A stretch of DNA of 64,000 nucleotides from Tissierella sp. MB52-C2 (GTDB taxonomy: Bacteria > Bacillota > Clostridia > Tissierellales > Tissierellaceae). The stretch lies in assembly GCF_030931715.1 (NCBI RefSeq), contig NZ_CP133261.1:3388643-3452642 (forward strand), written 5' to 3'. The translations under genes and the position numbers were made by a program. Below, in pieces: positions 11,484 to 51,369 of the stretch (within the stretch, counting starts at the first letter, position 1; the number at the start of each line of letters is the position of its first letter). A model generated the notes under the pieces. It saw nothing but the letters and a program-made list of their open reading frames with translations. It had not been told where the DNA came from and ran no database searches.

Positions 11484-11484
11484 A

Positions 11485-31704: not shown

Positions 31705-31743
31705 AAAGGACTGGTCTATAACTCCGTTATAGACCAGTCCTTT
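31705..31743 (-). terminator. Terminator of the ABC-2 transporter operon
   Basis: A perfect 18-bp stem AAAGGACTGGTCTATAAC with GTTATAGACCAGTCCTTT and a 3-nt loop overlaps the stop codon of the last permease gene. Confidence 0.9.
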
Positions 31744-33908: not shown

Positions 33909-33909
33909 A

Positions 33910-35057: not shown

Positions 35058-35972
35058 TTACTCTTTAGGTTGAAGTTCAAATTTAGCACTCTTATCATCT
35101 TTTATTTTATAAAAGTATTGCGATATTTCATATAAATCAAGATAAGTTAGTGAACTTATATCTTTATCTAATAATTTTCTTATATTCTCATCTTTCACTA
35201 ATTCCAAGGATTCAGGTCTATTTCTCACTAATTCCTCAAACATATTTTTAAGATCTTTGCTTATTATATGATTTAAAGGAATGTGCAAATTAGGCAGATA
35301 TCTAAAAAAATCAATTGTATCTTTAAAAGAAATTTTAATATCCAATTCTAATTCTTTTACTCTTCTTTGTACATAATTATTGTAAATAATTTTAACCTTA
35401 GAATCATCAAATTTGGACAATGAGATTTCACTATTAAGGGCTTTTTTTACATCATTTTCTAGGTTTAAGTATATTGAAGACATATCTCCTTTGTCTATGT
35501 CATGATATATGCAATTATAATTTAGGTAATCAATTACCGAGGCTTCGGTGCTTATCAATGAAACCGGGATCTTGTAGTATGATAAAAAATTAACTACCAT
35601 TTCAATTTCTCCCACTTCTTTTTCTCCTAAAGATAATATTTGAATCTCATCTCTAAAGGTATGAGGGAACCTACAATGGTCACTTTTCTTGCCATGAAAA
35701 CCCACTAGAAAAGCTGTTTTATAATCAATACTAAAATCAATATTTCTTATTTTCTTGATTATATTGATTCCATGACTTAATTTCTCCGTTAAATTACTAG
35801 GGAATATACCATCATTATGGTCATAGCATAGATATATATTCATATTATTAGGTATGGAGTTTATAATTGTAGCTATTTCTTTATATAATAAATCCTCATT
35901 CCTCTTATTATCCCACAAATCTTCAACTCCAATAATTCCTTCTAAATCGATTATAATCAATATATTATCCAT
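35058..35972 (-). CDS. M55-family (DppA D-aminopeptidase-like) protein in the RiPP operon
   Basis: The 304-aa protein begins IIIDLEGIIGVEDLWD, corresponding to the VDMEGISG zinc-binding start of DppA. It also has LCYDHNDGIF and AFLVGFHGKKSDHCRF (for LGYHA), and GEIEMVVNFLSYYKIPV. The C-terminal ~110 residues are unlike DppA. Ancestral M55 enzymes cleave D-amino-acid peptides. Two zinc ligands are visible; whether all are kept needs alignment. It overlaps the exporter gene by 8 nt. Roles could be degrading D-residue-containing product or trimming peptides. Confidence 0.68.
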   Translation of the reverse strand: MDNILIIIDLEGIIGVEDLWDNKRNEDLLYKEIATIINSIPNNMNIYLCYDHNDGIFPSNLTEKLSHGINIIKKIRNIDFSIDYKTAFLVGFHGKKSDHCRFPHTFRDEIQILSLGEKEVGEIEMVVNFLSYYKIPVSLISTEASVIDYLNYNCIYHDIDKGDMSSIYLNLENDVKKALNSEISLSKFDDSKVKIIYNNYVQRRVKELELDIKISFKDTIDFFRYLPNLHIPLNHIISKDLKNMFEELVRNRPESLELVKDENIRKLLDKDISSLTYLDLYEISQYFYKIKDDKSAKFELQPKE

Positions 35973-37605
35973 TTTGCACCTCTAGGCTTTCGTGTTTAAA
36001 TTTATAGTATCTATCAAAAAAATCAGATTTATAGTTTCCATGCTCAATCATTATTACTGTTTTATCTGAAAAATATTTATTTAGTATATAATCGAATTTA
36101 TTTTTAAAATCAGCATCTAAACTGGCTAGAGGTTCGTCCAATATATAAATAGATGAATTCTTGGATAGACATCTTATTATTTCTATTTTCTTCCTCTGAC
36201 CTCCAGATAGATTATAGTTTTCATCTATAAAAGTATCTATACCTTCTTCTAAGCTTTCTATATACTCCAATAGATCAAAATCCTCCAGAATTTCATTTAG
36301 AGCATATTTACCATTATCTGCTTCATATAAAATGTTATTTCTTATAGACAAAGGATAGACAGTTGGGTTTTGATTAGATATACTTATACAATCCATAATA
36401 TCTGAAGCCTTGTATTCTTTATGGCTATTATCATTAATCAGATATTCTCCACAACTTAAAGGATATTGTAATGATATAAGTTTTATAATACTGGATTTTC
36501 CACTTCCATTTTCACCTTCAATCAATATATGTTCCCCCTTATTTAAATGCATATTAACATCCTTCAATATATAAGAATCTTTTATTTTAAATTCTCCATC
36601 TTTTATCTCTATTTTATCAATATACTCAAGGGGTTGTTTATTTTCTTCTTCATCTTTGAATAATTTTTTTGTTTCCATTACTTCAAAGACCCTATCCAAA
36701 CTCACATGATATCTTTGGACAGTTGGTATCAGATTAGTTATCCCTATGAGGCTTATCAATACTTTTTGAATATAAAAAGATAGAAATATGAAGATTTCTG
36801 GGGTTATTCTTTTCTTAAATACAAGTATTCCAGCTAATATATAAAATAAGAATATATTGATTTTCATAATAGAATCCATTATATATTGTAAATTTATCTT
36901 ACTTTCATTTAGCTTATCAACATTAGAAATCTTATCCTCTATATAATCATCAAAATCCCTTACTATAAAGTTTTTAATCTTTTCATTTGAGGCAACTTCA
37001 TAAATATTATTAGAAACTTTCTTGATAATACCCAATATCACATCTGAATAATAAAAGTTTATTTTATTATATTTCTTTATTTTTTTAGAATAATGAATAT
37101 TGATAAATATTATAGGTATCACTAAAACAATAGTATATATAAACCAAGTATTTTGCTTAACTAATATAAATAGCATAGATAACAAAACTATAACTTCCGA
37201 TAAATATCCAAATAAATAATCTAAATAAGATAAAGGAGAACTATAATCACCTGTGAATACATTATTTAATTTAGCCGAATTATATGTACTGCTATATTGA
37301 AAATGTCCAAAATAGCTGTAAAATATCCTCTCTTTAACCTTATTATTTATTCTAATCATCAATTTAGAAGATACTTTATCTAATGAATAATTTATAATGC
37401 CAAACACCATATAGTATAGGGCAAACAGGATAATATACCTTTTAAACAAAAATCTATTATTCTGCATAATTGATGCAACAATTACACTTACTAGATAAGG
37501 TTCTATTAATGCACTGATCTTTATCAAAATACCTGTCAATTTAATCAATAAATATTTAATTTTATATCTATCTAATAAAGCCATACTCTTTTTTATATAT
37601 AGCAA
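35965..37605 (-). CDS. ABC exporter (fused membrane and ATPase domains) of the RiPP cluster
   Basis: The 546-aa half-transporter has six helices in residues 20-300 and an ATPase with Walker A EGENGSGKSS, signature NLSGGQRKKIEIIR and Walker B IYILDEP. The D-loop follows (LASLDAD) and the switch His is in IEHGN. There is no N-terminal C39 peptidase, so leader removal must be done by another protein. It lies 17 nt after the second radical SAM gene. It probably exports the modified peptide as a homodimer. Confidence 0.87.
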   Translation of the reverse strand: MLYIKKSMALLDRYKIKYLLIKLTGILIKISALIEPYLVSVIVASIMQNNRFLFKRYIILFALYYMVFGIINYSLDKVSSKLMIRINNKVKERIFYSYFGHFQYSSTYNSAKLNNVFTGDYSSPLSYLDYLFGYLSEVIVLLSMLFILVKQNTWFIYTIVLVIPIIFINIHYSKKIKKYNKINFYYSDVILGIIKKVSNNIYEVASNEKIKNFIVRDFDDYIEDKISNVDKLNESKINLQYIMDSIMKINIFLFYILAGILVFKKRITPEIFIFLSFYIQKVLISLIGITNLIPTVQRYHVSLDRVFEVMETKKLFKDEEENKQPLEYIDKIEIKDGEFKIKDSYILKDVNMHLNKGEHILIEGENGSGKSSIIKLISLQYPLSCGEYLINDNSHKEYKASDIMDCISISNQNPTVYPLSIRNNILYEADNGKYALNEILEDFDLLEYIESLEEGIDTFIDENYNLSGGQRKKIEIIRCLSKNSSIYILDEPLASLDADFKNKFDYILNKYFSDKTVIMIEHGNYKSDFFDRYYKFKHESLEVQNG

Positions 37606-37622: not shown

Positions 37623-38951
37623 TCATGCTTTAATTTTATCAGTATTTCTTATTTCCTCAGCTATCAATTGATTTAAAACTCTCTCTAAAGCTACTTTATA
37701 ATCTTCTTCTTTCCATCTGCTGCAATATCCTATATCTAAGGTATCGTATCTTTTGATATTCTCGGCAATACAACCGCCTCTGCAAAAATATTTATAATCA
37801 CAATCTTTGCATCTTGACATATTACGGACATCACGATTATGGATATTTTCTATATTATCCTTATTTATAAGAATCTCTGGCTTATAAGTTCCTACCTCTA
37901 GTTTAGGATTATCTGAACTTAAGCAAGTAACAGCCTTTCCATTTGGTATAAATGTATAAGAAGGTCTAAATGTAAGGTCACAATGCTTATATGGTATTCG
38001 AGTCTCCCTTGACTGTATCATACTAAGCATAGAAATTTCAGTATAATTTGTAAAGCTTTGACTTAGATATTTTGCTCTATTATCCAGTTCAATTAGTTGT
38101 TTAAAGGATTCCTTTGCAATATTAATATATGTCTTATCCCCACCTATAGATTTTGTTTTCATCATATCTAAATCAAATTTCACTGAAAATTTATTTTCCA
38201 ACCATCCATGCTTTTCCAGAATATCAAAAAATAGAGGATAATCTTCAATCTCTTCAGGATGATATACAGAATTGATAATTATCTCAATATCATTGTTCAA
38301 TAAAAACTCCAATGCTTCCCATATATTATCGTAGAACTTATCATTAAAGGTATTCCTATGTTTTAAATGTAGTTTTTTATTGCCATCAATTGAAAGTATT
38401 ACAGTTTGAATCCTTTCTCTATTTGATTTTATCAAAGATTCATATTTGGATATATTTGAACCATTGGTAGTAAAGGTCAGCCTTGCTGTTGGAAACTTTT
38501 CAAAAACGCTTTCTATAAATTTAAAATTATCATCTAGGAAAGGCTCTCCACCCATGATAGTGATGGTCTTTATAATTGAATTCGTATCAAATAACTCATC
38601 ATATACTTTATAGAATTTTTTTATCTTATCAAGGTCATCTGTATTCATCTTAGATTTAATATGTTTATAATCCTTTTGATAGCAATAGATACAATTATAA
38701 TTACAGTCAAAGCCAGTTATAAAAACTAAATCAAGAAATTGTTTCTTATCCTTTACAATGATTTCTGCTTCATCAATTAGTATATCAGAATTATTTTTCA
38801 GATAGTCTCTATAATCATCTAAAAGTTCATTATATTCTTCCTTGTCTGTAACTATATAATCCAAGGTTACCAAATCGAAAATTATATATTTTCCATAATT
38901 ATAATGAACTGTTTTCTCATTATCTGTTCTTATATTGAATTTTCCAATCAT
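37623..38951 (-). CDS. Radical SAM/SPASM peptide maturase 2
   Basis: The 442-aa enzyme has the radical SAM cluster motif CNYNCIYCYQ (about residues 89-98) with GGEPFLD. The C-terminal SPASM cysteines include SYTFIPNGKAVTCLSS and CKDCDYKYFCRGGC with a late YCSRW. Such enzymes form thioether or C-C cross-links, or other changes, on RiPP precursors. Its ATG overlaps the stop of maturase 1 (ATGA). Two different SPASM enzymes in one operon suggest two distinct modifications or a heteromeric enzyme. Confidence 0.9.
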   Translation of the reverse strand: MIGKFNIRTDNEKTVHYNYGKYIIFDLVTLDYIVTDKEEYNELLDDYRDYLKNNSDILIDEAEIIVKDKKQFLDLVFITGFDCNYNCIYCYQKDYKHIKSKMNTDDLDKIKKFYKVYDELFDTNSIIKTITIMGGEPFLDDNFKFIESVFEKFPTARLTFTTNGSNISKYESLIKSNRERIQTVILSIDGNKKLHLKHRNTFNDKFYDNIWEALEFLLNNDIEIIINSVYHPEEIEDYPLFFDILEKHGWLENKFSVKFDLDMMKTKSIGGDKTYINIAKESFKQLIELDNRAKYLSQSFTNYTEISMLSMIQSRETRIPYKHCDLTFRPSYTFIPNGKAVTCLSSDNPKLEVGTYKPEILINKDNIENIHNRDVRNMSRCKDCDYKYFCRGGCIAENIKRYDTLDIGYCSRWKEEDYKVALERVLNQLIAEEIRNTDKIKA

Positions 38952-40252
38952 AGTATCACTTCCTCTATGGTTTCATATCCTAAAGCATTGGAATATTGCA
39001 ATAGTTTCCTCGAAAAGGAACTGCATTCTCCTCTGAAGCCCTCATTATTAATATTTCTTGAATTTCCACATCCGCCACCACATAATAAAGCAAATTTACA
39101 ATTTTTGCATTGTTCAATAGTAGTTATATTCCTATTTAACAAGCTATTTTCAAAATACCTAAATTCAGGATAATATGTTCCAACTCTAGAATCTCTATTT
39201 CCTACAGAAACTAGGCAGGAATAAATATCTCCACTACTATCTATCAGCCTAGCACTTGTCTCTGCTGGACAACTATGGTATTTTAAACCGATAGGTTTGC
39301 CATTAATTAAGGACCTATGCAGGTTAGAGGACATATTGTTAATAGTATTGTCACTATATTCATCTACTGAGTACAATATAGGTTCTAAAAAGTTTTTACT
39401 ATCATCGTCTAATTGAAATATAGGCTGTAATTCAAATATCAACAGTTTATTATCTGGATATTCTTTCTTTAAATTATCCCTAAGCTCTAAACATTCTTGA
39501 TAATTAGCTTTGCTGATATTCATTCTTATTTTTATTCTTATATTATTTTTTATGGCTAAATCAATATTGGATATCAGTTTATCAAAGGTTCCCAGTCTAT
39601 TGTCTTTTAAAAAACGGGATTTATCATGGGTTTCCTTACCTCCATCTAATGTTACCTGCAGCCATTTTACCTTAATCTTTTTCAAAATATCAATATACTT
39701 ATCTATACCGTAGCCATTTGTTATTATTCGATATTCTTTATCAGGATATTTTTCTATTATATATTTTATAATATCCATATTTTGTTCCAATAGAGGTTCT
39801 CCACCATATAAAAGTATGCTTTCTATATTTGGAAACAGAGATTCAGACCTGTCAATCATATCTTCTGTCAGTATATCCTTATCATGGTTATTTACATTGG
39901 ATTCAAAGCAGTAGCTACATCCAAAATTACAATCATAGGTCAAAACTATACCTAAATCCTTAATATTTTTTTTTCGCTTTTCATAGTTTCTTCTAAGAGT
40001 TTCCAATTGAGATTCCTTGTACCTATTCTCTTCTTCTCGATTTTTCATCATATATTTTCGTTTAGTCAGTGCATTATATAAGTCTGTTTCGTATTTATTA
40101 TTAAACTCAATATCATCTGATTTTGTCCAAAGCTTGATTAGGTTTAAATCTTCTTCTGATAATATATCTGATAATCCATTTAATAAGTTGATTAAGATAT
40201 ATTCATCCTCTTTATTTGTCTTCATAATTGTAGAATGTTCTATAAAATGCAT
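38948..40252 (-). CDS. Radical SAM/SPASM peptide maturase 1
   Basis: This ~434-aa enzyme has a leading domain (residues 1-85, possibly precursor-binding), radical SAM motif CNFGCSYCFES with LYGGEPLL, and SPASM region DSSGDIYSCLVS, CKNCKFALLCGGGC and a final ECSSF. I start it at ATG 40252 (MHFIEHSTIMKTN), which has AGGAGG 7 nt upstream; the longer frame overlaps the lipoprotein gene. It belongs to the anaerobic sulfatase-maturase/SPASM family that modifies Cys-rich peptides. Confidence 0.88.
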   Translation of the reverse strand: MHFIEHSTIMKTNKEDEYILINLLNGLSDILSEEDLNLIKLWTKSDDIEFNNKYETDLYNALTKRKYMMKNREEENRYKESQLETLRRNYEKRKKNIKDLGIVLTYDCNFGCSYCFESNVNNHDKDILTEDMIDRSESLFPNIESILLYGGEPLLEQNMDIIKYIIEKYPDKEYRIITNGYGIDKYIDILKKIKVKWLQVTLDGGKETHDKSRFLKDNRLGTFDKLISNIDLAIKNNIRIKIRMNISKANYQECLELRDNLKKEYPDNKLLIFELQPIFQLDDDSKNFLEPILYSVDEYSDNTINNMSSNLHRSLINGKPIGLKYHSCPAETSARLIDSSGDIYSCLVSVGNRDSRVGTYYPEFRYFENSLLNRNITTIEQCKNCKFALLCGGGCGNSRNINNEGFRGECSSFSRKLLQYSNALGYETIEEVIL

Positions 40253-40277
40253 GGCTTGTCCTCCTATGGTTTTTATA

Positions 40278-41930
40278 TTAAAGTATGGATTCAATTCCCT
40301 TGATGTTTTCTTGCAAATAATTCGTCCAATCTACTTTTAATTCTTCAAATGTTTTTCCAAATACTTCTTTATAGGTTAATCCATTAAAATCTGTAACATT
40401 TAGGTAAAGCATCTTTTCCAATCCATATTCTTCAACTAAGTAATTAAAGAAACTAAAGTTCTTATGATAATCCATAGTGTCACCTTCATTCATCAAATCC
40501 ATAGGTGCATTTCCTTCATTTGAGTTAGTACCTAGAATCTTACGAAATTTAACTCTATATAAAACGTTCAAATTGTTTTTCATTATTCTCTTATTTTTAC
40601 TCTTTGCAATTTCTTCTATATTATTAATATCAATATCATTTTTAATATAAAGATTTAATAAATCGTCATATAAACTCTTTAGTTTTTTTAATTCATTTTC
40701 TGTGAAACCTTGTGCAAATAGAAGCTCTGTATAATTTGGTATGTTATTAAATTCATCTTCAATCATTTTAATAGAAGCTTCTGAATATATTATATCTAAA
40801 TAATTTGCAATTCCTTCATTTAACCATTTAGGTCTTGTAATAGTTATACCTTTTTCCATAAAAGGATTATAGAAAAACAAATGACAATATTCATGTGCAT
40901 GAGAATTTATATCTCTTAAGTTTATCTTGTCAGTTCCTTTGGAAAAAAATCCTCCATCAATAGGATCATAGGAGTTAGTAGTATCAAAAATATATTCTAT
41001 TTTAGGTACATTATTTAGTACCTCTTTATATTCGGCATAGAATCTTGGCGAATCTTGTTCTATCCCATTCTTTATAGCTAATATATCTCTATCAAATCTT
41101 AATATAATCTGTTCTATTTTTTCTGCTGTATTATATTGTGTTGCTATACTATACTGTGCTTCCATCTCTGCAATACTAATATCTATTTTAAATCCATTGA
41201 TTTCTTCTTTAGTATTTATAATAAATTTATCTGCTATATCGTATACTTCCATCCTATTCATTAGACTCTCTATTTTCCTTTGATAACCTAAGTCTATCCC
41301 CTTTTCCTTTGCCCAATTCTCTATATCAGATATATTTATATTGTTTTTAAGAAGTTCTTCCTTTTTATTATTTTTTAATAGGTATTCAACTAAGTCCCTT
41401 GATGCAGATTTTATATTATCTATTTCTTCTTTAGTTGAAAATGGCTCAAAAAATCTTGCTCCAAATAATGAAAAATCATTATTTGTATAATATGTAGTAT
41501 AATCCACTTCCTTTTTCTCTATATCATATATATATGCATAAAGCCCTTCTGATATCCAGTTATCATATATTCCATAAGATTTCTTTATAAGTTCTTTTTT
41601 AAATTCTTCTGTTTCTATGAATTTAACATCACATTTTATTATTCTATCTACCTTTGGAACTATATGTTGCTTTGATATCTCTATTTCAATATTTTCTATT
41701 GGTGAAAATTCATTTATCTTATGTAATTCATTTAATATAGATGTATATATACTTTCCTTTTCATCTATATTATCCGATATTTTTATCTTTATATTGTCAT
41801 TTTGATAGATTGTAGAACCTTCACCACTAGCTTCAACTAATTGGATTTTTTCTTTTTTTTCATTCTTTTCACTACATCCTATTAGAAATATTGTAATGAT
41901 GAGTAAAAATATGATTTTTCTGTTTTTCAT
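40278..41930 (-). CDS. Peptidase-MA-like lipoprotein, cassette C
   Basis: The 550-aa protein has a lipoprotein signal ending LIGC (Cys19), so it is surface-anchored. The zinc motif HEYCH is at about 346-350, and a third ligand is likely the Glu in WLNEGIANY, about 21 residues further on, as in gluzincins. About 150 C-terminal residues end FEELKVDWTNYLQENIKGIE. It is one of four tandem paralogues. Since the exporter lacks a C39 domain, this family is the best candidate for removing the leader or for inactivating the product. It is the only copy whose transcript continues into the biosynthetic genes. Confidence 0.82.
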   Translation of the reverse strand: MKNRKIIFLLIITIFLIGCSEKNEKKEKIQLVEASGEGSTIYQNDNIKIKISDNIDEKESIYTSILNELHKINEFSPIENIEIEISKQHIVPKVDRIIKCDVKFIETEEFKKELIKKSYGIYDNWISEGLYAYIYDIEKKEVDYTTYYTNNDFSLFGARFFEPFSTKEEIDNIKSASRDLVEYLLKNNKKEELLKNNINISDIENWAKEKGIDLGYQRKIESLMNRMEVYDIADKFIINTKEEINGFKIDISIAEMEAQYSIATQYNTAEKIEQIILRFDRDILAIKNGIEQDSPRFYAEYKEVLNNVPKIEYIFDTTNSYDPIDGGFFSKGTDKINLRDINSHAHEYCHLFFYNPFMEKGITITRPKWLNEGIANYLDIIYSEASIKMIEDEFNNIPNYTELLFAQGFTENELKKLKSLYDDLLNLYIKNDIDINNIEEIAKSKNKRIMKNNLNVLYRVKFRKILGTNSNEGNAPMDLMNEGDTMDYHKNFSFFNYLVEEYGLEKMLYLNVTDFNGLTYKEVFGKTFEELKVDWTNYLQENIKGIESIL

Positions 41931-42013: not shown

Positions 42014-42056
42014 GATATAGAAATAGATGGAGGTTAATTCCATCTATTTCTATATC
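42014..42056 (-). promoter_or_regulatory. Intercistronic hairpin between precursor and protease, cassette C
   Basis: GATATAGAAATAGATGG (42014-42030) pairs perfectly with 42040-42056. There is no T-run after it. The same hairpin occurs in cassettes A and B; it may protect the precursor message or reduce read-through to the protease. Confidence 0.75.
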
Positions 42057-42070
42057 TTTAAAATTATTAC

Positions 42071-42238
42071 CTAACAGTTTATAAACATATTATATGAATA
42101 GTATATGTCCCTACAGCTACGAGTAAGTCCACCACAACTTTGCTCTAAGCTTATGTCATCTCCCAATTGAATGTTTCCATTTTTCTCTTCTTCTAAATCA
42201 ATATCTTCATTCCAGATAATATCGTTCAATGATTTCAT
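42071..42238 (-). CDS. RiPP precursor peptide, cassette C
   Basis: This 55-residue ORF was missed by size. AGGAGG lies 8 nt before the ATG. The leader begins MKSLNDIIWNED, continues acidic (DLEEE), then NGNIQLGDDISLEQ. The core from residue 34 holds Cys35, Cys42 and Cys55 (SCGGLTRSC, Tyr-rich middle, C-terminal Cys). It differs from the cassette A peptide at only a few core positions. The leader is shared with all three precursors, which fits recognition by common maturases. Confidence 0.88.
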   Translation of the reverse strand: MKSLNDIIWNEDIDLEEEKNGNIQLGDDISLEQSCGGLTRSCRDIYYSYNMFINC

Positions 42239-42259
42239 ATTTTCAGCCTCCTTTCTGTA

Positions 42260-42304
42260 AGTATTTGTCGCTAATTATAAAATCACGTAATTAGCATAAA
42301 TACT
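42260..42304 (-). promoter_or_regulatory. Structured 5' leader hairpin before the cassette C precursor
   Basis: AGTATTT and CTAATTA on one side pair with TAATTAG and AAATACT on the other, ending 7 nt from the Shine-Dalgarno. It lies in a ~240-nt untranslated leader conserved in cassettes A, B and C. Confidence 0.55.
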
Positions 42305-42484
42305 ACTCTTTTAATTGAAGTGGCTAGTGTTCTCCCATTTTAGACATAATTAACTAATCATATATATAATTCAAAATTAGTTTATAAATGAGAGACCTAC
42401 TCTATTCCTCTTTCCCCATAGAGAGCTATAGAAATATTAGCATAATATTATACTAAATATTTCTACTAGCCAATTCATAAGTTC

Positions 42485-42513
42485 ATTGTATTATTACTTA
42501 AGTATTCCGTCAA
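42485..42513 (-). promoter_or_regulatory. Promoter of cassette C
   Basis: Minus strand: TTGACG (42508-42513), 17 bp, TACAAT (42485-42490). Spacing and hexamers are the same in cassettes A and B. Confidence 0.85.
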
Positions 42514-42543
42514 CCCGTTGATATGGCTTATCTCCCGACATTA

Positions 42544-42571
42544 TTCAACATAATTTGGTATCTTTTGTCGA
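42544..42571. promoter_or_regulatory. Conserved 28-bp upstream activator-type site, cassette C
   Basis: The site begins TTCAACATA and ends TTTTGTCGA, an imperfect inverted repeat 30 bp upstream of the -35. It matches sites at 44897, 47256 and 49291; likely target of the adjacent NarL-type response regulator. Confidence 0.72.
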
Positions 42572-42579
42572 ATAAATAT

Positions 42580-42618
42580 AAGTCAGTTAGAATTATGTGT
42601 TTTAACTCCAACTGACTT
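42580..42618 (-). terminator. Hairpin ending the cassette B transcript
   Basis: AAGTCAGTT (42580-42588) pairs with AACTGACTT (42610-42618). Equivalent hairpins occur at 44933-44971 and 47292-47330, always between a protease stop and the next cassette's promoter. The T-run is weak, so termination may be partial. Confidence 0.5.
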
Positions 42619-42679
42619 TTGCAACATCCAGAACTATTTAATCGTACACTCAACATATATCCAAACAACTTACATGATA

Positions 42680-44323
42680 TTAAAGTATGGATTCAATTCC
42701 CTTAATATTTTCTTTTAAATAATTCGTCCAATCTACTTTTAATTCTTCAAATGTTTTTCCAAATACTTCTTTATAGGTTAATCCATTAAAATCTGTAACA
42801 TTTAAGTAAAGCATCTTTTCCAATCCATATTCTTCAACTAAGTAATTAAAGAAACTAAAATTTTTGTGATAATCCATAGATTCACCTTCTGTCATCAAAT
42901 CCATAGGTGCATTTCCTTCATTTAAGTCAATACCTAGTGTCTTATGAAATTTAACTTTGTGTAAAACTCTCAAATTATTTTCCACTATTCTCTTATTTTT
43001 ACTCTTTGCAATTTCTTCTATATTATTAATATCAATATCATTTTTAATATAAATATTTAATAAATTATCGTATAAACTCTTTAGTTCTTTTAACTCCTCT
43101 TCTGTAAAATCTTGTGTACCTAGAAGTTCTGTATAATTGGGTATGTTATTAAATCCATCTTCTATCATTTTCATATAAGATTCTGAATACACTCCGTGCA
43201 TATAATTCGCAATTCCTTCACCAAGCCATCCTGAAATTCCTATATTTATACCTTTTTCTATAAAAGGATTACGAAATAAAATATGGCAATATTCGTGTGC
43301 ATGAACGTTCAATATCTTCAAATTTACTTCTTCACTTCCCGGCTGTATCACAAATCCACCATCAGGCAAATGATCAACACTCGTATTAAAAATATATTTT
43401 ATCTTAGGAACATTGTTTAAGATTTCCTTATATTCAGCATAGAATTTTGGTGCTTCCTCCTCTATTCCCTTTCTTACAGCTAATATATCTCTATCAAACA
43501 TCAATATAAACTGTTCTATTTTTTCTGCTGTATCATACTGCTTAGTTCTTTCATTTTTTGCTTTTATTTCTGTCATGCTTATATCTATTTTAAATCCATT
43601 GATTTCTTCTCTCGTATTTATAATGAATTTATCTGCTATATCGTATACTTCCATTCTATTCATTAAACTTTCTATTTCATTATGATAGGATAAATCTATA
43701 TTTTTTTCTTTTGCCCATTCTTCCATGTGTAGTATTTCTATATTGTTTTTAAGAAGTTCTTCCCTTTTATTATCTTTTAATAAGTATTCTACTAAATCTA
43801 TAGATGCAGATTTTACACTTTCTATTTCCTCTATAGATGAAAAAGGCTCAAAAAATCTTGCTCCAAATAATGAGAAATCATTATTTGAATAATATGTAGT
43901 AAAGTCCACCTCCTTTTCTTCTATACCATATATCCTTGCATAAAGCCCTTCTGATATCCAATTATCATATATATCATAAGACCTTTTAATTAATTGTTTT
44001 CTGAAATCTTCCGTTTCTATATACTTTGCATCACATTTTATTATCTTGTCTAGATTAGGAACAATATATTGTTTTGATATCTCTATTTCAATATTTTCTA
44101 TAGGAGAAAATTCATCTATCCTTTGTAATTCTTTCAGTATAGATGCGTATATACTTTCCTTCTCATCTGTATTATCAGCTATTTTTATCTTTATATTATC
44201 ATTTTGATAGATTGTAGAACCTTCACTGCTAACTTCAACTAATTGAATTTGTCCATTTTTTTCACTACATCCTGTCAGTAATATTGTAATGATAAGCAAT
44301 AGTATGACTTTTCTATTTTTCAT
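42680..44323 (-). CDS. Peptidase-MA-like lipoprotein, cassette B
   Basis: This 547-aa paralogue of the protein at 40278 has lipobox LTGC and zinc motif HEYCHILFRN, with WLGEGIANYMHGVY supplying the third ligand. The N-terminal ~150 and C-terminal ~100 residues are almost identical to cassette C, while the region before and around HEYCH differs most. It follows the cassette B precursor by 108 nt and has its own promoter. Paired evolution with its precursor suggests product-specific processing or immunity. Confidence 0.8.
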   Translation of the reverse strand: MKNRKVILLLIITILLTGCSEKNGQIQLVEVSSEGSTIYQNDNIKIKIADNTDEKESIYASILKELQRIDEFSPIENIEIEISKQYIVPNLDKIIKCDAKYIETEDFRKQLIKRSYDIYDNWISEGLYARIYGIEEKEVDFTTYYSNNDFSLFGARFFEPFSSIEEIESVKSASIDLVEYLLKDNKREELLKNNIEILHMEEWAKEKNIDLSYHNEIESLMNRMEVYDIADKFIINTREEINGFKIDISMTEIKAKNERTKQYDTAEKIEQFILMFDRDILAVRKGIEEEAPKFYAEYKEILNNVPKIKYIFNTSVDHLPDGGFVIQPGSEEVNLKILNVHAHEYCHILFRNPFIEKGINIGISGWLGEGIANYMHGVYSESYMKMIEDGFNNIPNYTELLGTQDFTEEELKELKSLYDNLLNIYIKNDIDINNIEEIAKSKNKRIVENNLRVLHKVKFHKTLGIDLNEGNAPMDLMTEGESMDYHKNFSFFNYLVEEYGLEKMLYLNVTDFNGLTYKEVFGKTFEELKVDWTNYLKENIKGIESIL

Positions 44324-44382
44324 TTTATATCCCCCATTCTAGCAAAGCTTCATACAAAGAATAAAACTTAGATAAATATTAA

Positions 44383-44419
44383 TATAAAATAGATGGAGCT
44401 AAGTTCCATCTATTTTATA
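44383..44419 (-). promoter_or_regulatory. Intercistronic hairpin between precursor and protease, cassette B
   Basis: TATAAAATAGATGGA (44383-44397) pairs with TCCATCTATTTTATA (44405-44419); same position and core as in cassettes A and C. Confidence 0.75.
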
Positions 44420-44431
44420 CCTTAAAAATTA

Positions 44432-44590
44432 TCAATTACACAATGTGTATGGGTTATATGATCCACAACCACAGTTATTATTAATTCCACAACTTTGCTC
44501 TAAGCTTGGGTATTCTCCCAATTGAATGTTTCCATTTTCTTCTTCTAAATCAAGATCTTCATTCCAGATAATATCGTTCAATGATTTCAT
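44432..44590 (-). CDS. RiPP precursor peptide, cassette B
   Basis: The 52-residue ORF starts at ATG 44590 after GGAGGCAG; a longer in-frame ORF to 44698 is an artefact because it enters the untranslated leader. Its leader is MKSLNDIIWNEDLDLEEENG, nearly that of the other two. The core is different: Cys34, Cys40, Cys42 and Cys51, with SCGINNNCGCGSYNPY. The core is Asn/Gly-rich, so the mature product would have another ring pattern. Confidence 0.88.
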   Translation of the reverse strand: MKSLNDIIWNEDLDLEEENGNIQLGEYPSLEQSCGINNNCGCGSYNPYTLCN

Positions 44591-44837
44591 ACTTCTGCCT
44601 CCTTTCTGTAAGTATTTATCACTAATTACCAAATCATGTAATTGGCATAAGTACTGCCTTTTTAATTGAAATGGATAGTGTCTTCTCACATTAAACACAG
44701 TTTGTTAATCATACGTATATAGTTCAAAATTAGTTTATAAATGAGAGACCTACTCTATTCCTCTTTCCCTATAGAGAGCTATAGAAATATTAGCATAATA
44801 TTATACTAAATATTTCTACTAGCCAATTCATAAGTTC

Positions 44838-44866
44838 ATTGTATTATTGTTTAATCATCGCGTCAA
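44838..44866 (-). promoter_or_regulatory. Promoter of cassette B
   Basis: TTGACG (44861-44866), 17 bp, TACAAT (44838-44843) on the minus strand. It is followed by a ~245-nt untranslated leader like that of cassette C. Confidence 0.85.
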
Positions 44867-44896
44867 CTCGTTGATATGACTTGTTTTCTGACATTT

Positions 44897-44924
44897 CTCA
44901 ACATAATTCGGTATCTTTCGTCGA
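44897..44924. promoter_or_regulatory. Conserved 28-bp upstream site, cassette B
   Basis: Begins CTCAACATA and ends TTTCGTCGA, 30 bp upstream of the -35; the most diverged of the four copies. Confidence 0.68.
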
Positions 44925-45032
44925 ATAAATATAAGTGAGTTAGAATTATGTGTTTTAATTCCAACTGACTTTTGCAATATCCAGAACTATTTAATCATAC
45001 ATTCAACATATATCCAAAAAATTTACATTATA

Positions 45033-46664
45033 TTAAAGTATGGATTCAATTCCCTTGATGTTTTCTTGCAAATAATTCGTCCAATCTACTTTTAATTCTT
45101 CAAATGTTTTTCCAAAGGTTTCTTTATAGGTTAATTGACTGAAATCTGCAACATTTAAATAAAGTATCTTCTCTAATCCATACTCTTGAATTAAATAGTT
45201 AACAAAACTAAAATTTTTATGATAATTCATAGTATTACCTTCATTCATTAAATCTAAAGGAGCACTCCCATCATTTAATTTAGACCCAAGTATTTGATTG
45301 AATTTAACTCTAGATAAATATCTCAAATGATTTTCTATTATTCTTTTATTTTGATTCTTTGCAATTTCTTCTATATTGTTAATATCAATATTGTTTTCAA
45401 TATAAATATTTAATAGATTAGTGTATAGACTTTGTAGTTCTTTTAATTCATTATCCGTAAGATTTAGTGTTTCTAGTACTTCCATAAAATTAGATATCTT
45501 ATAAAAGTTATATTCCATTACTTCAATATAAGCTTCAGAATACACTCCATATAAATAGTCTGCAATCCCTTCGTTAAGCCATACTGGCTTTGTAATAACT
45601 ATGCCCTCTTCTATAAAGGGATTATGGAATAGTAAATGACAATATTCATGTGCATGAACATTGACATCTCTTAAATGTATTTCTTCAGTTCCTGCCATAA
45701 TATAGCCTCCATCAGCATTACCATCAGCACTTGTATCAAAGATATACTCTATTTTTGGCACATTATTTAATATTTGTTTGTACTCCGAATAAAACCTTGG
45801 TGCGTCCTTCTCTATTCCTTTCTTTAAAGCTAATATATCCCTATCAAACTTCAATATAACCTGTTCTATTTTTTCTGCTGTACTGTACTGTTCATTTATT
45901 TCTGCAATACTTATATCTATTTTAAATCCATTTATTTCTTCTCTCGTATTTATAATGAATTTATCTGCTATATCGTATACTTCCATTCTATTCATTAAAC
46001 TTTCAATTTCTCTTTGATAAGATAAATCTATACTCTTTTCTTCTGCCCATTCTTCTATATCTGATATTTCTATATTGTTTTTAAGAAGTTCCTCCTTTTT
46101 ATTGTTTTTTAATATGTATTCCACTAAATCTATAGATGCAGATTTTACACTTTCTATCTCTTCCTTTGATACAAATGGCTTAAAAATCCTTGCTCCAAAT
46201 AATGAAAATTCATTATTTGAATAATATGTAGTAAAGTCCACTTCCTTTTTCTCTATATCATATATCTTTGCATATAGTCCTTCTGATATCCAGTTATCAT
46301 ATATTCCATAGGATTTTTTTATAAGTTCCTTTTTAAACTCTTCTGTTTCTATAAATTTAGCATCACATTTTATTATCTTATCTATATTTGGAACTATATA
46401 TTGTTTTGATATTTCTATTTCAAGATTTTCTATAGGAGAAAATTCATCTATCCTTTGTAATTCGTTTAATATCGATGTATAAATTATTTCCTTCTCATCT
46501 GTATTATCAGCTATTTTTATCTTTATATTATCATTTTGATAGATTGTAGAACCTCCACTACTAACCTCTATTAATTGAATTGGCTCTTTTTTTTCATTCT
46601 TTTCACTACATCCTATTAGAAGTATTGTGATGATAAGTAGAAATATCATTTTTCTGTTTTTCAT
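45033..46664 (-). CDS. Peptidase-MA-like lipoprotein, cassette A
   Basis: The 543-aa paralogue has lipobox LIGC, HEYCHLLFHN and WLNEGIADYLYGVY. It shares the FEELKVDWTNYLQENIKGIE ending with cassette C. It follows the cassette A precursor by 121 nt. The mature N-terminal region (about 35-200) is lysine/glutamate-rich and may contact substrate. Same role as proposed for the other copies. Confidence 0.8.
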   Translation of the reverse strand: MKNRKMIFLLIITILLIGCSEKNEKKEPIQLIEVSSGGSTIYQNDNIKIKIADNTDEKEIIYTSILNELQRIDEFSPIENLEIEISKQYIVPNIDKIIKCDAKFIETEEFKKELIKKSYGIYDNWISEGLYAKIYDIEKKEVDFTTYYSNNEFSLFGARIFKPFVSKEEIESVKSASIDLVEYILKNNKKEELLKNNIEISDIEEWAEEKSIDLSYQREIESLMNRMEVYDIADKFIINTREEINGFKIDISIAEINEQYSTAEKIEQVILKFDRDILALKKGIEKDAPRFYSEYKQILNNVPKIEYIFDTSADGNADGGYIMAGTEEIHLRDVNVHAHEYCHLLFHNPFIEEGIVITKPVWLNEGIADYLYGVYSEAYIEVMEYNFYKISNFMEVLETLNLTDNELKELQSLYTNLLNIYIENNIDINNIEEIAKNQNKRIIENHLRYLSRVKFNQILGSKLNDGSAPLDLMNEGNTMNYHKNFSFVNYLIQEYGLEKILYLNVADFSQLTYKETFGKTFEELKVDWTNYLQENIKGIESIL

Positions 46665-46731
46665 TCATGTGTCCTCCTTTGATAAAGATATATCTTAACA
46701 ATTTGAATACAAAATAATTAAATAAACTTAA

Positions 46732-46769
46732 TATAGAAATAGATGGAGCTAATTCCACCTATTTCTATA
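46732..46769 (-). promoter_or_regulatory. Intercistronic hairpin between precursor and protease, cassette A
   Basis: TATAGAAATAGATGGA pairs with TCCACCTATTTCTATA. The single mismatch is a G-U pair in the minus-strand RNA, which suggests that the RNA structure is selected. Confidence 0.72.
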
Positions 46770-46785
46770 CTTTGAAAATTATTAC

Positions 46786-46950
46786 CTAACAATTTAGAAA
46801 CATATTATATGAGTATATGTCCCTACAGCTACGAGTAAGTCCACCACAACTTTGTTCTAAGCTTATGTCATCTCCAAATTGAATGTTGCCATTTTTTTCT
46901 TCTTCTAAATCAATATCTTCATTCCAGATAATATCGTTCAATGATTTCAT
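46786..46950 (-). CDS. RiPP precursor peptide, cassette A
   Basis: This 54-residue ORF has AGGAGG 8 nt before the ATG. The leader is the same as in cassette C except NIQFG for NIQLG. The core has Cys35, Cys42 and Cys54: one Tyr of the middle Tyr pair is deleted and MFIN becomes MFLN. It is probably a recent duplicate of the cassette C peptide. Near-identity at DNA level extends through the leader and promoter. Confidence 0.88.
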   Translation of the reverse strand: MKSLNDIIWNEDIDLEEEKNGNIQFGDDISLEQSCGGLTRSCRDIYSYNMFLNC

Positions 46951-47196
46951 ATTTTCAGCCTCCTTTCTGTAAGTATTTGTCGCTAATTATAAAATCACGT
47001 AATTAGCATAAATACTACTCTTTTAATTGAAGTGGCTAGTGTTCTCCCATTTTAGACATAACTAACTAATCATATATATAATTCAAAATTAGTTTAGAAA
47101 TGAGAGACCTACTCTATTCCTCTTTCCCCATAGAGAGCTATAGAAATATTAGCATCTTACTATACCAAATACTTCCATTAGCCAATTCATAAGTTC

Positions 47197-47391: not shown

Positions 47392-49035
47392 TCATAGTAT
47401 AGATTCAATCCCCTTGATATTTTCTTTTAAGTAATTCATCCAATCTACTTTTAATTCATCAAAGGTTTTTCCAAATACTTCTTTATAGGTTAATTGACCA
47501 ATATTAGTTACATTCAGATATAGTATCTTGTCTAACCCATATTCTTCGACTAAATAATTAAAAAAACTACAATTTTTATGATAATTCATAGTATTTCCTT
47601 CGTATAATTGATCGGCAATAACGCTCTCTTCTTTTAGTTTAGAACCCCAAATCTCATTAACTTTAACTTTAGAAAAAACTCTCACATGGTTTTCTAATAT
47701 TCTTTTATTTTTATCCTTCGCTATTTCTTCTATATTATTGATATCAATATCATTCTTAACATAAATATCTAATTCTTTATCAAATACACTTTTTATTTCT
47801 TTAAACTTACTATATGTTGAATCTTTAATTGCTATATCTTCTGTGTAATTAGACTTAATATCAAAAAAACTTTTCAATGTTTCCACATTACTTTCAGAAT
47901 AAACTACATCGAAATAATCTGCCATCCCTTCATCTATCCATGATGGTGTTGAAATAGCTATACCATTATCTATAAACGGACTGTAGAAGAAGAAGTGACA
48001 ATATTCATGTGCATGAGTTGTAATATCTCTTAAGCTTACTCTTTTAGAACCTTGAGAAACATAACCATCAGCATACACATCAGCATTAGTATAAAAAATG
48101 TACTCTATTTTAGGAACATTATTTAAGATTTCCTTATATTCAGCATAGAATTTTGGTGCTTCTTCCTCTATTCCCTTTTTTATAGCTAATATATCTCTAT
48201 CAAACATCAATATAATCTGTTCTATTTTTTCTGCTGTATCGTATTGTTCAGTTATATTATTTTTAGCTTTTATTTCTGCAATACTTATATCTATCTTAAA
48301 TCCATTTATTTCTTCTCTGGTATTTATAATGAATTTATCTGATATATCATACACTTCCATCCTATTCATTAGGCTTTCTATTTCTCTTTGGTAAGATAAA
48401 TCTATCCCCTTTTCTTCTGCCCATTCTTCTATATCAGATATATTTATATTGTTTTTAAGAAGTTCTTCCTTTTTATTATTTTTTAATATGTATTCCACCA
48501 AATCTATAGATGCAGATTTTACATTATCTACTTCTTCCTTAGTTGAAAATGGCTCAAAAAATCTTGCTCCAAATAAAGAAAAATCGTTATTTGAATAATA
48601 TGTAGAAAATCCTATGGTTTTATCTTGTCCAAATATCTTGCCGTAAAGTCCTTCTGATATCCAATTATCATATATCCCATAGGACTTTTTTATAAGTTCC
48701 TTTTTAAACTCTTCTGTTTCTATAAACTTGGTATCACATTTTATTATCTTATCTATATTTGGAACTATATATTGTTTTGATATTTCTATTTCAAGATTTT
48801 CTATAGGAGAAAATTCATCTATTTTCTGTAATTCATTTAATATGGATGTATATATATTTTCCTTTTCATCTATATTATCAGCTATTTTTATCTTTATATT
48901 ATCATTTTGATAGATTGTAGAACCTCCACTACTAACTTCCATTAATTGAATTGGTTCTTTTTTTTCATTCTTTTCACTACATCCTATTAGAAGTATTGTG
49001 ATGATAAGTAAAATTATGATTTTTTTATTTCTCAT
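47392..49035 (-). CDS. Peptidase-MA-like lipoprotein, cassette 0 (no precursor seen)
   Basis: The 547-aa protein has lipobox LIGC, HEYCHFFFYS and WIDEGMADYFDVVY, so the zinc site is intact. It is the most divergent copy in its last 200 residues (TYSKFKEIKSVFDKELDIYV). Its promoter and upstream site are the most distal of the series, facing the two-component system. Unlike the other three, no leader-type ORF lies between its promoter and start. It may be a general immunity protease or an old cassette that lost its peptide. Confidence 0.8.
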   Translation of the reverse strand: MRNKKIIILLIITILLIGCSEKNEKKEPIQLMEVSSGGSTIYQNDNIKIKIADNIDEKENIYTSILNELQKIDEFSPIENLEIEISKQYIVPNIDKIIKCDTKFIETEEFKKELIKKSYGIYDNWISEGLYGKIFGQDKTIGFSTYYSNNDFSLFGARFFEPFSTKEEVDNVKSASIDLVEYILKNNKKEELLKNNINISDIEEWAEEKGIDLSYQREIESLMNRMEVYDISDKFIINTREEINGFKIDISIAEIKAKNNITEQYDTAEKIEQIILMFDRDILAIKKGIEEEAPKFYAEYKEILNNVPKIEYIFYTNADVYADGYVSQGSKRVSLRDITTHAHEYCHFFFYSPFIDNGIAISTPSWIDEGMADYFDVVYSESNVETLKSFFDIKSNYTEDIAIKDSTYSKFKEIKSVFDKELDIYVKNDIDINNIEEIAKDKNKRILENHVRVFSKVKVNEIWGSKLKEESVIADQLYEGNTMNYHKNCSFFNYLVEEYGLDKILYLNVTNIGQLTYKEVFGKTFDELKVDWMNYLKENIKGIESIL

Positions 49036-49717: not shown

Positions 49718-50761
49718 ATGAGAAGATTTATAGAAAAATCATTCATAGTTCTTTTTTGTTTATATAATACTTATAAAATAAACCCAACAAAAGACTTAGC
49801 TTTTTACTTTCTTATATCTCTGATTCTCTCCTTATTCTTAGATTTGTTTCGCCCTAAAAAAGTAAGGTTTTTTATTTATTTTATCTTTTTAATATTTTAT
49901 CTTTATGATCCCTTATTTATCTATTACTTACCTTTGATTTTTTATAATATGTATTTGGATTTCAGTATATATGCTTTTTTTACCATAATATTAGTTCTAA
50001 GGGATTTTTCTATAGCAAATCTTTTAGTTTCCTCCATATCTATTTACCTTTCAATTATGACAAAAAGATTCAATGTATTTTTAAATCAAAACAAAATAGT
50101 AAGGGACGAATTGAAAGAAGATGCCATTTATTTAAAAAAATATACTGAACAATTAAAAATTGATAGAGAAAAGAATATTCATATTGCCATACTTACAGAA
50201 AGAAATAGAATTGCAAGAGAACTCCATGACTCTATAGGTCATGCCATAAGCAGCAGTATATTACAGGTGGAAGCCCTAAAGATAATCTCCGATAATAACA
50301 TGATAGAAAGTTTAGATTTACTCCAAAATACCTTAAATAACGGAATGAATGATATTAGAAATAGCATCCACAATTTATATAATGAATCTCTTGATTTGGA
50401 GAGTAGAATCGAAAGCCTTTGTAGAGAAGTTCCTACTATAGACATTCAACTTATATATAAGTTAGAAGATAGTTTACCCTATGATTTAAAATTTGACATA
50501 TTATCTGTTATAAGAGAGGCCATCACTAATTGTGCTAAACATTCTAATGCTACAGAGCTTAAAATCAACCTTCTAAGTCAACCTAAGTTCTATTCTATTA
50601 TAGTGAGGGATAATGGCAACAAATTTAATAAAACAGATGATCTCTTAACTAAGGGAATAGGTCTTCTTTCTATGAATGAAGTCGCTAATAAATATAATGG
50701 TTTTTTAAATTATGAGTTTGATAATGGATTTAAAATACACCTGACTTTAATGAAAGGATGA
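49718..50761 (+). CDS. Sensor histidine kinase (HisKA_3, DesK/LiaS-like)
   Basis: The 347-aa kinase has four or five membrane segments in residues 8-125 with short loops and no large sensor domain. A coiled coil follows, then the H-box RELHDSIGHAISSSILQVEA (phospho-acceptor His about residue 170) and an HATPase domain with IREAITNCAKHSNATE and DNGNKF. This is the DesK/LiaS architecture that senses membrane state or membrane-bound peptides. It overlaps the regulator gene region and is divergent from the RiPP cassettes. Confidence 0.88.
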   Translation: MRRFIEKSFIVLFCLYNTYKINPTKDLAFYFLISLILSLFLDLFRPKKVRFFIYFIFLIFYLYDPLFIYYLPLIFYNMYLDFSIYAFFTIILVLRDFSIANLLVSSISIYLSIMTKRFNVFLNQNKIVRDELKEDAIYLKKYTEQLKIDREKNIHIAILTERNRIARELHDSIGHAISSSILQVEALKIISDNNMIESLDLLQNTLNNGMNDIRNSIHNLYNESLDLESRIESLCREVPTIDIQLIYKLEDSLPYDLKFDILSVIREAITNCAKHSNATELKINLLSQPKFYSIIVRDNGNKFNKTDDLLTKGIGLLSMNEVANKYNGFLNYEFDNGFKIHLTLMKG

Positions 50762-50766
50762 TGTAT

Positions 50767-51369
50767 ATGAAAGTTATAATCGTAGATGATGATTATTTAG
50801 TAGTAAACTCTTTAAAAACAATCGTAAATGCCAGTGGAATAGAAGTTTTAGCTGTGGGTCATGATGGTATGGAGGCAGTTGAACTTTATTCCCTTCACAA
50901 ACCTGATTTAATCCTTATGGACATAAGGATGGAAAAAATGAATGGAATAGAAGCTACTAAGGAAATTTTAGATAGAGACCCTAATGCTAAAATACTGTTG
51001 ATTACCACATTTCAAGATGATGAATATATATCTGCTGCCCTTTCCTTAGGCTGTAAAGGTTATATATTAAAACAAAATATTGGGGGCATTATCCCTGCCA
51101 TAAATGCAGTTTACTCCGGTAATCATGTTTTCGATTCAAAGATAGTATCTAATATACAAAAGCATTCTAAGAAAAACATAGATATAGATTTAACAGATAG
51201 AGAGTTTGATATTTTGCTTTTAGTTGCAGAAGGATTTAATAATAAGGAGATTGCTGAAAAGCTATTTCTAAGTGAAGGTACTGTAAGAAATTATATTTCT
51301 CATATGTTAGAAAAATTATCTTTAAGAGATAGGACACAACTAGCCATTTATTATTATAAAAAACAGTAG
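50767..51369 (+). CDS. NarL/LuxR-type response regulator
   Basis: The ~200-aa regulator has a receiver (VIIVDDDYLVV, phospho-Asp in LILMDIRMEKMNG, conserved Lys in GYILKQ) and a LuxR HTH (LTDREFDILLLVAEGFNNKEIAEKLFLSEGTVRNYISHML). I use ATG 50767 (AAAGGA 8 nt upstream). It is co-transcribed with the kinase. NarL-type regulators bind short inverted repeats upstream of -35 elements, which fits the four conserved sites in front of the cassettes. Confidence 0.88.
   Translation: MKVIIVDDDYLVVNSLKTIVNASGIEVLAVGHDGMEAVELYSLHKPDLILMDIRMEKMNGIEATKEILDRDPNAKILLITTFQDDEYISAALSLGCKGYILKQNIGGIIPAINAVYSGNHVFDSKIVSNIQKHSKKNIDIDLTDREFDILLLVAEGFNNKEIAEKLFLSEGTVRNYISHMLEKLSLRDRTQLAIYYYKKQ

What the first reader, a model, noticed from the sequence alone, without database searches (positions are those of the whole stretch)
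42071..46950. Three small precursor genes with constant leader and variable Cys core
ORFs at 42071-42238, 44432-44590 and 46786-46950 (55, 52, 54 aa) share the leader through residue ~25 and diverge sharply after SLEQSC. Core Cys positions are 35/42/55, 34/40/42/51 and 35/42/54. This constant-leader, variable-core pattern is the hallmark of a RiPP family using shared maturases, and each ORF has a strong AGGAGG-type RBS.
Basis: seen in the sequence. Interest (0 to 1): 0.86.

Follow-up and report, generated by a model that had tools for sequence, protein, structure and literature searches.

The report
Paired peptide–peptidase cassettes, radical-SAM RiPP
An anaerobic bacterium (Tissierella) carries three small cysteine-containing precursor peptides with a shared front end, probably made into crosslinked peptides by shared enzymes, and each is paired with its own surface-anchored protein-cutting enzyme whose active part varies along with the peptide, much as antibiotic/immunity pairs do.

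Summary
The three precursors are real: minus strand, correct ORFs, Cys positions and ribosome-binding sites, no other copies in the genome. Correction: cores 1 and 3 are near-identical; only core 2 differs. The RiPP reading holds. Downstream lie two radical SAM/SPASM enzymes with intact cluster motifs, an exporter and an M55 D-aminopeptidase. Relatives in other Clostridia families keep this cassette and the leader motif LxxLIWN…C with unrelated Cys-containing cores; no NCBIfam model covers the precursors, and neither radical SAM enzyme reaches any model's cut-off.

Each precursor is followed by its own lipoprotein metallopeptidase (HEYCH…EG). In four lineages these paralogous peptidases are conserved outside but hypervariable inside the predicted catalytic segment, mirroring constant leader/variable core. 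Between two Tissierella species the one shared core travels with a 99%-identical catalytic segment, while leader and N-terminal domain resemble other paralogs. Precursor-less intact peptidases recur. In some relatives the paired peptidase is S41 or papain-like.

Best explanation: a multi-peptide thioether-type RiPP system with a core-matched surface peptidase per peptide, most likely immunity; core-specific processing is the main rival. Product, bridges and function are untested.

The parts
46786..46950 (-). precursor 3, 54 aa: MKSLNDIIWNEDIDLEEEKNGNIQFGDDISLEQSC + core GGLTRSCRDIYSYNMFLNC
   Evidence: ORF and RBS; homologs in relatives
44432..44590 (-). precursor 2, 52 aa: same leader, core GINNNCGCGSYNPYTLCN (ATG at 44590; the longer GTG start of the ORF list is unlikely, the RBS precedes the ATG)
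   Evidence: core ortholog in Tissierella sp. P1 (L026:6826-6987)
42071..42238 (-). precursor 1, 55 aa: same leader, core GGLTRSCRDIYYSYNMFINC, near-identical to core 3
47392..49035 (-). pep4: precursor-less lipoprotein metallopeptidase (lipobox LIGC, HEYCH...DEG), first of the array
45033..46664 (-). pep3: lipoprotein metallopeptidase downstream of precursor 3 (HEYCH...NEG)
42680..44323 (-). pep2: lipoprotein metallopeptidase downstream of precursor 2 (HEYCH...GEG); catalytic segment 99% identical to the one paired with the same core in Tissierella sp. P1
40278..41930 (-). pep1: lipoprotein metallopeptidase downstream of precursor 1 (HEYCH...NEG)
38948..40294 (-). rSAM-B: radical SAM/SPASM peptide maturase; the profile of its family matches CteB (5wgg) almost end to end, including the N-terminal part where CteB carries its RRE. 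Homologs start at residue Met15
37623..38951 (-). rSAM-A: second, divergent radical SAM/SPASM protein
35965..37605 (-). ABC exporter (membrane + ATPase domains, no C39 peptidase domain found)
35058..35972 (-). M55 (DppA-type) D-aminopeptidase homolog; metal ligands D9, E11, H52, H93, E122 and catalytic H104 conserved
31742..34842 (-). ABC-2 transporter (ATPase + two permeases), syntenic in Tissierella sp. P1; export, self-protection or unrelated (inferred)
49718..51369 (+). divergent NarL-type histidine kinase and response regulator, syntenic in Tissierella sp. P1; likely regulator of the array (inferred)
42014..42056 (-). 18-bp hairpin between precursor 1 and pep1, one in each unit (also 44381-44421 and 46730-46771)
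42485..42513 (-). promoter-like TTGACG-17-TACAAT upstream of precursor 1, repeated at 44838-44866 and 47197-47225; in units 1 and 3 preceded by a terminator-like hairpin at 42580-42618 and 47292-47330
   Evidence: consensus match only

Best explanation
This is a multi-peptide radical-SAM RiPP locus built from repeated cassettes of promoter, precursor, hairpin and lipoprotein metallopeptidase, served by one shared maturation and export set. Shown by sequence: cassette anatomy, conserved leader, intact maturase and peptidase motifs, co-diversification of core and peptidase catalytic segment, and recurrence in other lineages. Inferred: rSAM-B and rSAM-A recognise the constant leader (LxxIIWNED) and crosslink Cys residues of the core, most likely as thioethers. 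The ABC exporter releases the peptide, with the M55 enzyme probably trimming it. Each membrane-anchored peptidase recognises the matching core at the cell surface and cleaves it, most likely as self-immunity, so that core and catalytic segment are inherited and exchanged as matched sets while the constant parts are homogenised by recombination.
For: Maturases: both rSAMs keep CxxxCxxC and seven SPASM Cys in all homologs; the nearest solved structure for both is CteB, a thioether-forming maturase (5wgg, E 7.6e-24 and 2e-16). All 20 aligned precursors keep the leader W and a Cys at the leader/core border, and nearly all a second core Cys. Matching: paralogous peptidases within a genome differ in 31-60% of residues within -25..+130 of HExxH but in 11-35% elsewhere, in Tissierella (window and P1), G101, G063 and a Lachnospiraceae MAG (p 4e-2 to 6e-21). 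The reverse holds for cross-species partners: W pep2 vs P1 pepC differ in 2/151 catalytic vs 58/396 other residues (pS 0.03 vs 0.29 in the N-terminal part; rSAM-B pS 0.42), and exactly these two are paired with the same core. A constant leader with a variable catalytic segment implies that the peptidase reads the core, not the leader. Shared maturases are single, peptidases scale with precursors. Intact precursor-less peptidases occur in the window (pep4), P1 (pepA, pepB) and G063, and P1 pepB keeps the catalytic segment of W pep1 (pS 0.06) without its precursor: the surplus-immunity pattern described for polymorphic toxins (PMC3482391). Unit structure.
Against: The matched-inheritance case rests on one cross-species pair (core 2). 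Precursors 1 and 3 have near-identical cores but catalytic segments only 59% identical, so pairing is not strict, although a recent copying of precursor plus 5' region could explain it. In P1 the peptidase beside precursor G2 is interrupted by two in-frame stops while the precursor is intact, which does not suit obligatory immunity (sequencing error possible). The catalytic fold is inferred from motifs and a sub-threshold Peptidase_MA_2 match; the AlphaFold model failed (pLDDT 44). No evidence of expression, crosslinks or killing.
Confidence: 0.5

Rival explanations
1. Same RiPP system, but the paired surface peptidase is a core-specific maturation enzyme: it makes the final cut(s) that release or activate its own crosslinked peptide after export. 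The exporter has no C39 domain, so a leader/core protease is needed.
For: Exporter lacks a detectable peptidase domain. Several relatives whose flanks could be read carry an exported peptidase near a precursor although its class varies: MA-type, M50, S41, papain-like, M16. Known RiPP leader metalloproteases include M1, M16, M50 and M61 types (PMC10885120).
Against: A leader protease would read the constant leader and would not need a hypervariable catalytic segment. Precursor-less peptidases stay intact. One shared protease normally suffices for several precursors with one leader.
Confidence: 0.27
2. The peptidase is the effector (weapon or nutrient protease) and the crosslinked peptide is its cognate inhibitor or modulator, as in protease/inhibitor operons; core and catalytic segment co-vary because they bind each other.
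For: Explains co-diversification and interchange of protease families next to precursors of one leader family as easily as the other readings.
Against: Peptidases are membrane-anchored lipoproteins with lipobox Cys in all copies, and precursor-less intact copies would be uninhibited. It gives no obvious role to the exporter and the M55 enzyme.
Confidence: 0.13
3. The co-variation is only linkage: a tandem array of old duplicates in which 2-kb blocks are exchanged between species and constant parts converge by gene conversion, without any peptide-peptidase recognition.
For: Mosaic identity along the unit shows frequent recombination; core and downstream peptidase are neighbours, so they move together by distance alone.
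Against: Variation outside the core is concentrated in the enzyme's active-site segment, normally the most conserved part, in four lineages.
Confidence: 0.1

Closest known systems
Ranthipeptides/sactipeptides (SCIFF-CteB, PapA-PapB, Clo7bot, TIGR04463-associated Cys-rich peptides)
   Same: Radical SAM/SPASM maturases homologous to CteB including its N-terminal region; short leader plus Cys-containing core; clostridial hosts.
   Different: Precursors match no NCBIfam model. rSAM-B scores 129 bits against TIGR04463's 525 cut-off, 118 vs 600 (Clo7bot), 103 vs 340 (PapB). Two rSAMs, an M55 enzyme and one peptidase per precursor are added.
Sactibiotics with two radical SAM enzymes (thuricin CD, PMC3132745; Ruminococcin C with RumMC1/RumMC2, PMC8188230)
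   Same: Two radical SAM maturases serving related Cys-bearing precursors.
   Different: One-peptidase-per-precursor arrays and an M55 enzyme are not part of those systems as I know them; no direct sequence comparison with the trn/rum precursors was made here.
Epipeptides (EpeX/EpeE, M50 EpeP)
   Same: Radical SAM RiPP with a membrane peptidase and ABC genes; rSAM-A profile matches EpeE/YydG structures weakly (8ai3, E 3e-6); the M55 D-aminopeptidase would suit D-residues.
   Different: EpeE and PoyD use a critical catalytic Cys (PMC8326336); rSAM-A and rSAM-B have no invariant Cys beyond the ten cluster ligands. Cores are Cys-bearing.
Polymorphic toxin/immunity cassettes (CDI, Rhs; PMC3482391)
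   Same: Constant front end, exchangeable variable module followed by a cognate partner gene, arrays with surplus partner genes.
   Different: Here the effector is a small, probably modified peptide and the putative immunity is an exported peptidase whose own catalytic segment is the variable module.
Protease-based bacteriocin self-protection or resistance (Abi/CAAX proteases, nisin resistance protein, MccF; from general knowledge, Kjos 2010 is cited within PMC8538875)
   Same: A peptidase gives tolerance to a peptide bacteriocin.
   Different: Those are not tandem co-diversifying lipoprotein gluzincin-like enzymes; no homology was tested.

Membership tests
RiPP (general) | Genetically encoded precursor with conserved leader and variable core next to maturase genes | tested here: met
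   20 precursors beside radical SAM genes, exporter and mostly an M55 gene
RiPP (general) | Modified peptide product | not testable with these tools
   needs mass spectrometry
Ranthipeptide/sactipeptide | Radical SAM + SPASM/twitch maturase with leader-binding N-terminal domain | tested here: met
   CxxxCxxC and full SPASM Cys invariant; rSAM-B family aligns to CteB over positions 7-423 of 442; the RRE fold itself was not modelled
Ranthipeptide/sactipeptide | Cys thioether to another residue of the core | not testable with these tools
   only the conserved Cys positions are shown
NCBIfam maturase equivalogs (TIGR04463, TIGR04334 Clo7bot, NF047865 PapB, TIGR03974 SCIFF, TIGR04068 CcpM) | Score above curated cut-off | tested here: not met
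   all far below cut-off for rSAM-B; rSAM-A exceeds only the generic SPASM-domain model
Epipeptide/proteusin epimerase systems | Conserved catalytic Cys beyond the cluster ligands | tested here: not met
   no extra invariant Cys in six or seven homologs of either rSAM
Peptidase M55 (DppA) | Profile match and zinc ligands D, E, H, H, E plus catalytic H | tested here: met
   PF04951 E 2.7e-9; profile vs 1hi9 E 1.1e-19, all six positions invariant; the roles of the residues in DppA are from general knowledge
Peptidase MA clan (gluzincin) | HExxH plus downstream E ligand | tested here: met
   HEYxH in all copies, E 13-22 residues on in all but G101 copy C, which has D
Peptidase MA clan (gluzincin) | Family-level profile or fold match | tested here: inconclusive
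   Peptidase_MA_2 up to 31 bits vs cut-off 32.4; AlphaFold model pLDDT 44
Polymorphic effector/immunity cassette | Variable module and partner exchanged together, surplus partner genes | tested here: inconclusive
   one cross-species matched exchange and precursor-less peptidases in three genomes fit; precursors 1 and 3 do not fit strict matching
Polymorphic effector/immunity cassette | Partner protects against effector | not testable with these tools
   needs a killing or tolerance assay

The most novel reading that the evidence does not exclude
A polymorphic RiPP conflict system in which self versus non-self is set by a surface metallopeptidase whose catalytic segment co-evolves with, and is swapped together with, the hypervariable crosslinked core; different lineages have replaced the peptidase by unrelated protease families (S41, papain-like) while keeping the precursor-peptidase pairing.
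Probability: 0.35. Interest if true: 0.82.

Novelty: new variant of a known kind. Interest (0 to 1): 0.62.

Why it matters
It adds an unnamed, scattered clostridial leader family with two unnamed radical SAM maturases and an M55 enzyme. If the matching is real, it also gives a natural set of protease/modified-peptide specificity pairs. Such pairs would make it directly testable how producers that mature many cores with one enzyme set keep specific immunity when cores diversify, and would provide proteases that can cut crosslinked peptides.

Tried and rejected
Chance similarity of small ORFs: rejected. Known precursor families: no NCBIfam or meaningful Pfam hit. Epimerase reading of the rSAMs, suggested by the D-aminopeptidase: disfavoured, no extra invariant Cys. 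Stop codons reported inside relatives' rSAM genes: on reading the plus-strand loci these were 5' flanking codons, not interruptions. Upstream pairing (peptidase before precursor): disfavoured, because the shared core 2 is followed, not preceded, by the matching catalytic segment, and promoter/terminator order puts the precursor first. Structures of the peptidase and of rSAM-A: models too poor for a fold search. Rfam: nothing. A structured 5' UTR: foldable and 92% conserved but without covariation. Literature on M55 or on a matched peptidase in radical SAM RiPPs: nothing found in the searchable papers.
Full report
WHAT IS THERE. All genes of interest are on the minus strand. In the order of transcription the array reads pep4 - precursor 3 - pep3 - precursor 2 - pep2 - precursor 1 - pep1 - rSAM-B - rSAM-A - ABC exporter - M55 peptidase - ABC-2 transporter. 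A NarL-type kinase/regulator pair is divergent at the head (49718-51369). Precursors 1 and 3 share nearly the same core, and only precursor 2 has a different one. They are the only three copies in the genome. The host is a Tissierella: the same-genus genome with 87% identical rSAM-B is Tissierella sp. P1, NZ_NPMN01000001.1, whose contig length of 321286 equals G001:C1.

CASSETTE IN RELATIVES. P1 has the syntenic locus with two precursors (cores GINVNCGCGSYNPSTLCN and GGVLSPGCKIDYSYRPATGCTK), four peptidase genes and the same regulator. Strong rSAM-B homologs exist in 13 of 249 genomes of the order and 4 of 391 sampled from the class, the window's own included. About half of these are a solo-rSAM type, several with a short MKPIIExxW...CCAC peptide and without the cassette. 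The set of two rSAMs, M55 and exporter was seen in the window, P1, G063, G081, G101 and G107, and in a Defluviitaleaceae and a Lachnospiraceae MAG; in the Lachnospiraceae contig the second rSAM is cut by the contig end. Precursors next to them share L-x-x-[LIV]-[IM]-W-x-x-E/D with small variations, an acidic stretch and a Cys at the leader/core border; after that Cys the cores are unrelated between, and often within, genomes. No NCBIfam model matches the precursors, and neither rSAM reaches a maturase-family cut-off.

ENZYMES. rSAM-A and rSAM-B are only 24% identical. Each keeps the radical SAM triad and the seven SPASM Cys and no further invariant Cys. The profiles of both hit the thioether-forming CteB best. 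Known radical SAM epimerases use an additional critical Cys (PMC8326336), which is absent here. I therefore favour crosslinking over epimerisation, although the M55 enzyme, a D-aminopeptidase family member with all metal ligands, keeps D-residues possible. The AlphaFold model of rSAM-A was poor. The exporter matched only membrane and ATPase parts of peptidase-containing models.

THE PAIRED PEPTIDASES. Each precursor is followed by a 543-550 aa lipoprotein with lipobox Cys, HEYCH and (N/G/D)EG(I/M)A. Within the window the four copies are 70-76% identical overall. The differences are concentrated around the active-site motif: residues -25 to +130 of HExxH differ in 31-53% of positions against 16-21% elsewhere. 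The same concentration is found among paralogs of P1 (33-59% vs 20-31%), G101 (47-56% vs 11-16%), G063 (36-44% vs 13-21%) and a Lachnospiraceae MAG (60% vs 35%). In most enzymes the active-site segment is the conserved part, so this is unusual. It is the same constant/variable layout as leader and core of the precursor placed in front. I chose the segment borders after seeing the first window profile in Tissierella, so the Tissierella p-values are descriptive; the same borders were then applied to the other lineages. Pairs within a lineage are not independent of each other.

MATCHED INHERITANCE. Between the two Tissierella species one core is shared (precursor 2 and P1 precursor G1). The peptidase downstream of it is one whose catalytic segment is shared: 2 of 151 residues differ, pS 0.03, DNA identity mostly 93-100%. 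Its N-terminal domain differs in the ordinary way (pS 0.29), and rSAM-B has pS 0.42. The leaders of the two P1 precursors are identical in protein and differ from those of the window, so leaders are homogenised within a genome while cores are not. DNA identity along the 2.4-kb unit is a mosaic. Precursors 1 and 3 show the limit of matching: nearly the same core, but catalytic segments differ at 41% of positions.

ORPHANS. pep4 in the window, pepA and pepB in P1 and the first copy in G063 have no precursor in front yet keep motifs and lipobox. P1 pepB has the catalytic segment of window pep1 (pS 0.06) without its precursor. In polymorphic toxin systems such surplus partner genes are left-over immunity genes (PMC3482391). 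In P1 the peptidase after precursor G2 has two in-frame stops behind the catalytic segment; in a draft genome this may be a sequencing error.

OTHER PROTEASE CLASSES. In a Defluviitaleaceae MAG (L042) three MKPIIET- or MTPIIDL-type precursors are followed by two MA-type and two S41 peptidases. In a Lachnospiraceae MAG (L040) the precursor is followed by a papain-like enzyme with a lectin-like domain. G107 has an M16 PreP-like enzyme after its last precursors, and Anaerosalibacter (G081/L035) an M50 enzyme. The M16 and M50 neighbours could be coincidental.

EXPRESSION SIGNALS. Each precursor has a promoter-like TTGACG-17-TACAAT about 245 bases upstream, and two of the three units have a terminator-like hairpin before it. 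A long hairpin lies between precursor and peptidase in all five Tissierella units (z -3.3 to -5.0), as expected if the precursor is made in excess of the peptidase (inferred).

MECHANISM AND ODDS. RiPP with radical-SAM crosslinks: about 0.85. Paired peptidase acts on, or binds, its own peptide: about 0.7. Immunity rather than core-specific processing: roughly 2:1, because the leader is constant, precursor-less peptidases persist, and their number follows the precursors rather than the maturases. These are judgements, not computed values. No experiment supports any of this yet, and nothing comparable was found in the papers that could be searched, a library that lacks most subscription journals.

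Noticed in passing
window 42239-42490 and equivalents (44591-44845, 46951-47203), minus strand: The ~250-nt 5' UTR of each precursor is 92% conserved across five copies and folds to about -52 kcal/mol, but without compensatory changes; possible regulatory RNA.
   Followed up: partly
L047, L039, L045, L050 (Alkaliphilus, Tissierella, Defluviitaleaceae); L046 for the rSAM alone: A solo radical SAM/SPASM protein (~449 aa, about 34% identical to rSAM-B) often preceded by a ~40-aa peptide such as MKMKPIIEAxW...CCAC; related leader, different product type.
   Followed up: partly
L042:147-11651 (Defluviitaleaceae MAG): Related precursors each followed by an exported peptidase, MA-type or S41, suggesting that the protease family can be exchanged.
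   Followed up: partly
L027:5247-6605 and 10935-12296 (G101): rSAM-A is duplicated (74% identical) beside different precursors; divergence is highest in residues 270-390, perhaps substrate-facing.
   Followed up: no
L031:9595-9833 (G110): Two near-identical 31-aa peptides MKKLT(V/T)K(I/V)WSAKSIKE...NACQYCMK before a pair of radical SAM proteins and an MFS-like transporter.
   Followed up: no
window 51403-56614: Two ABC exporter genes plus a GHKL kinase and LytTR regulator (Agr-like), next to the array; possible second peptide system.
   Followed up: no
window 58043-59600: IS3-type transposase pair near the region (by sequence appearance, not searched).
   Followed up: no
window 5188-6275: ABC transporter split into several ORFs, apparently a decaying gene.
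   Followed up: no
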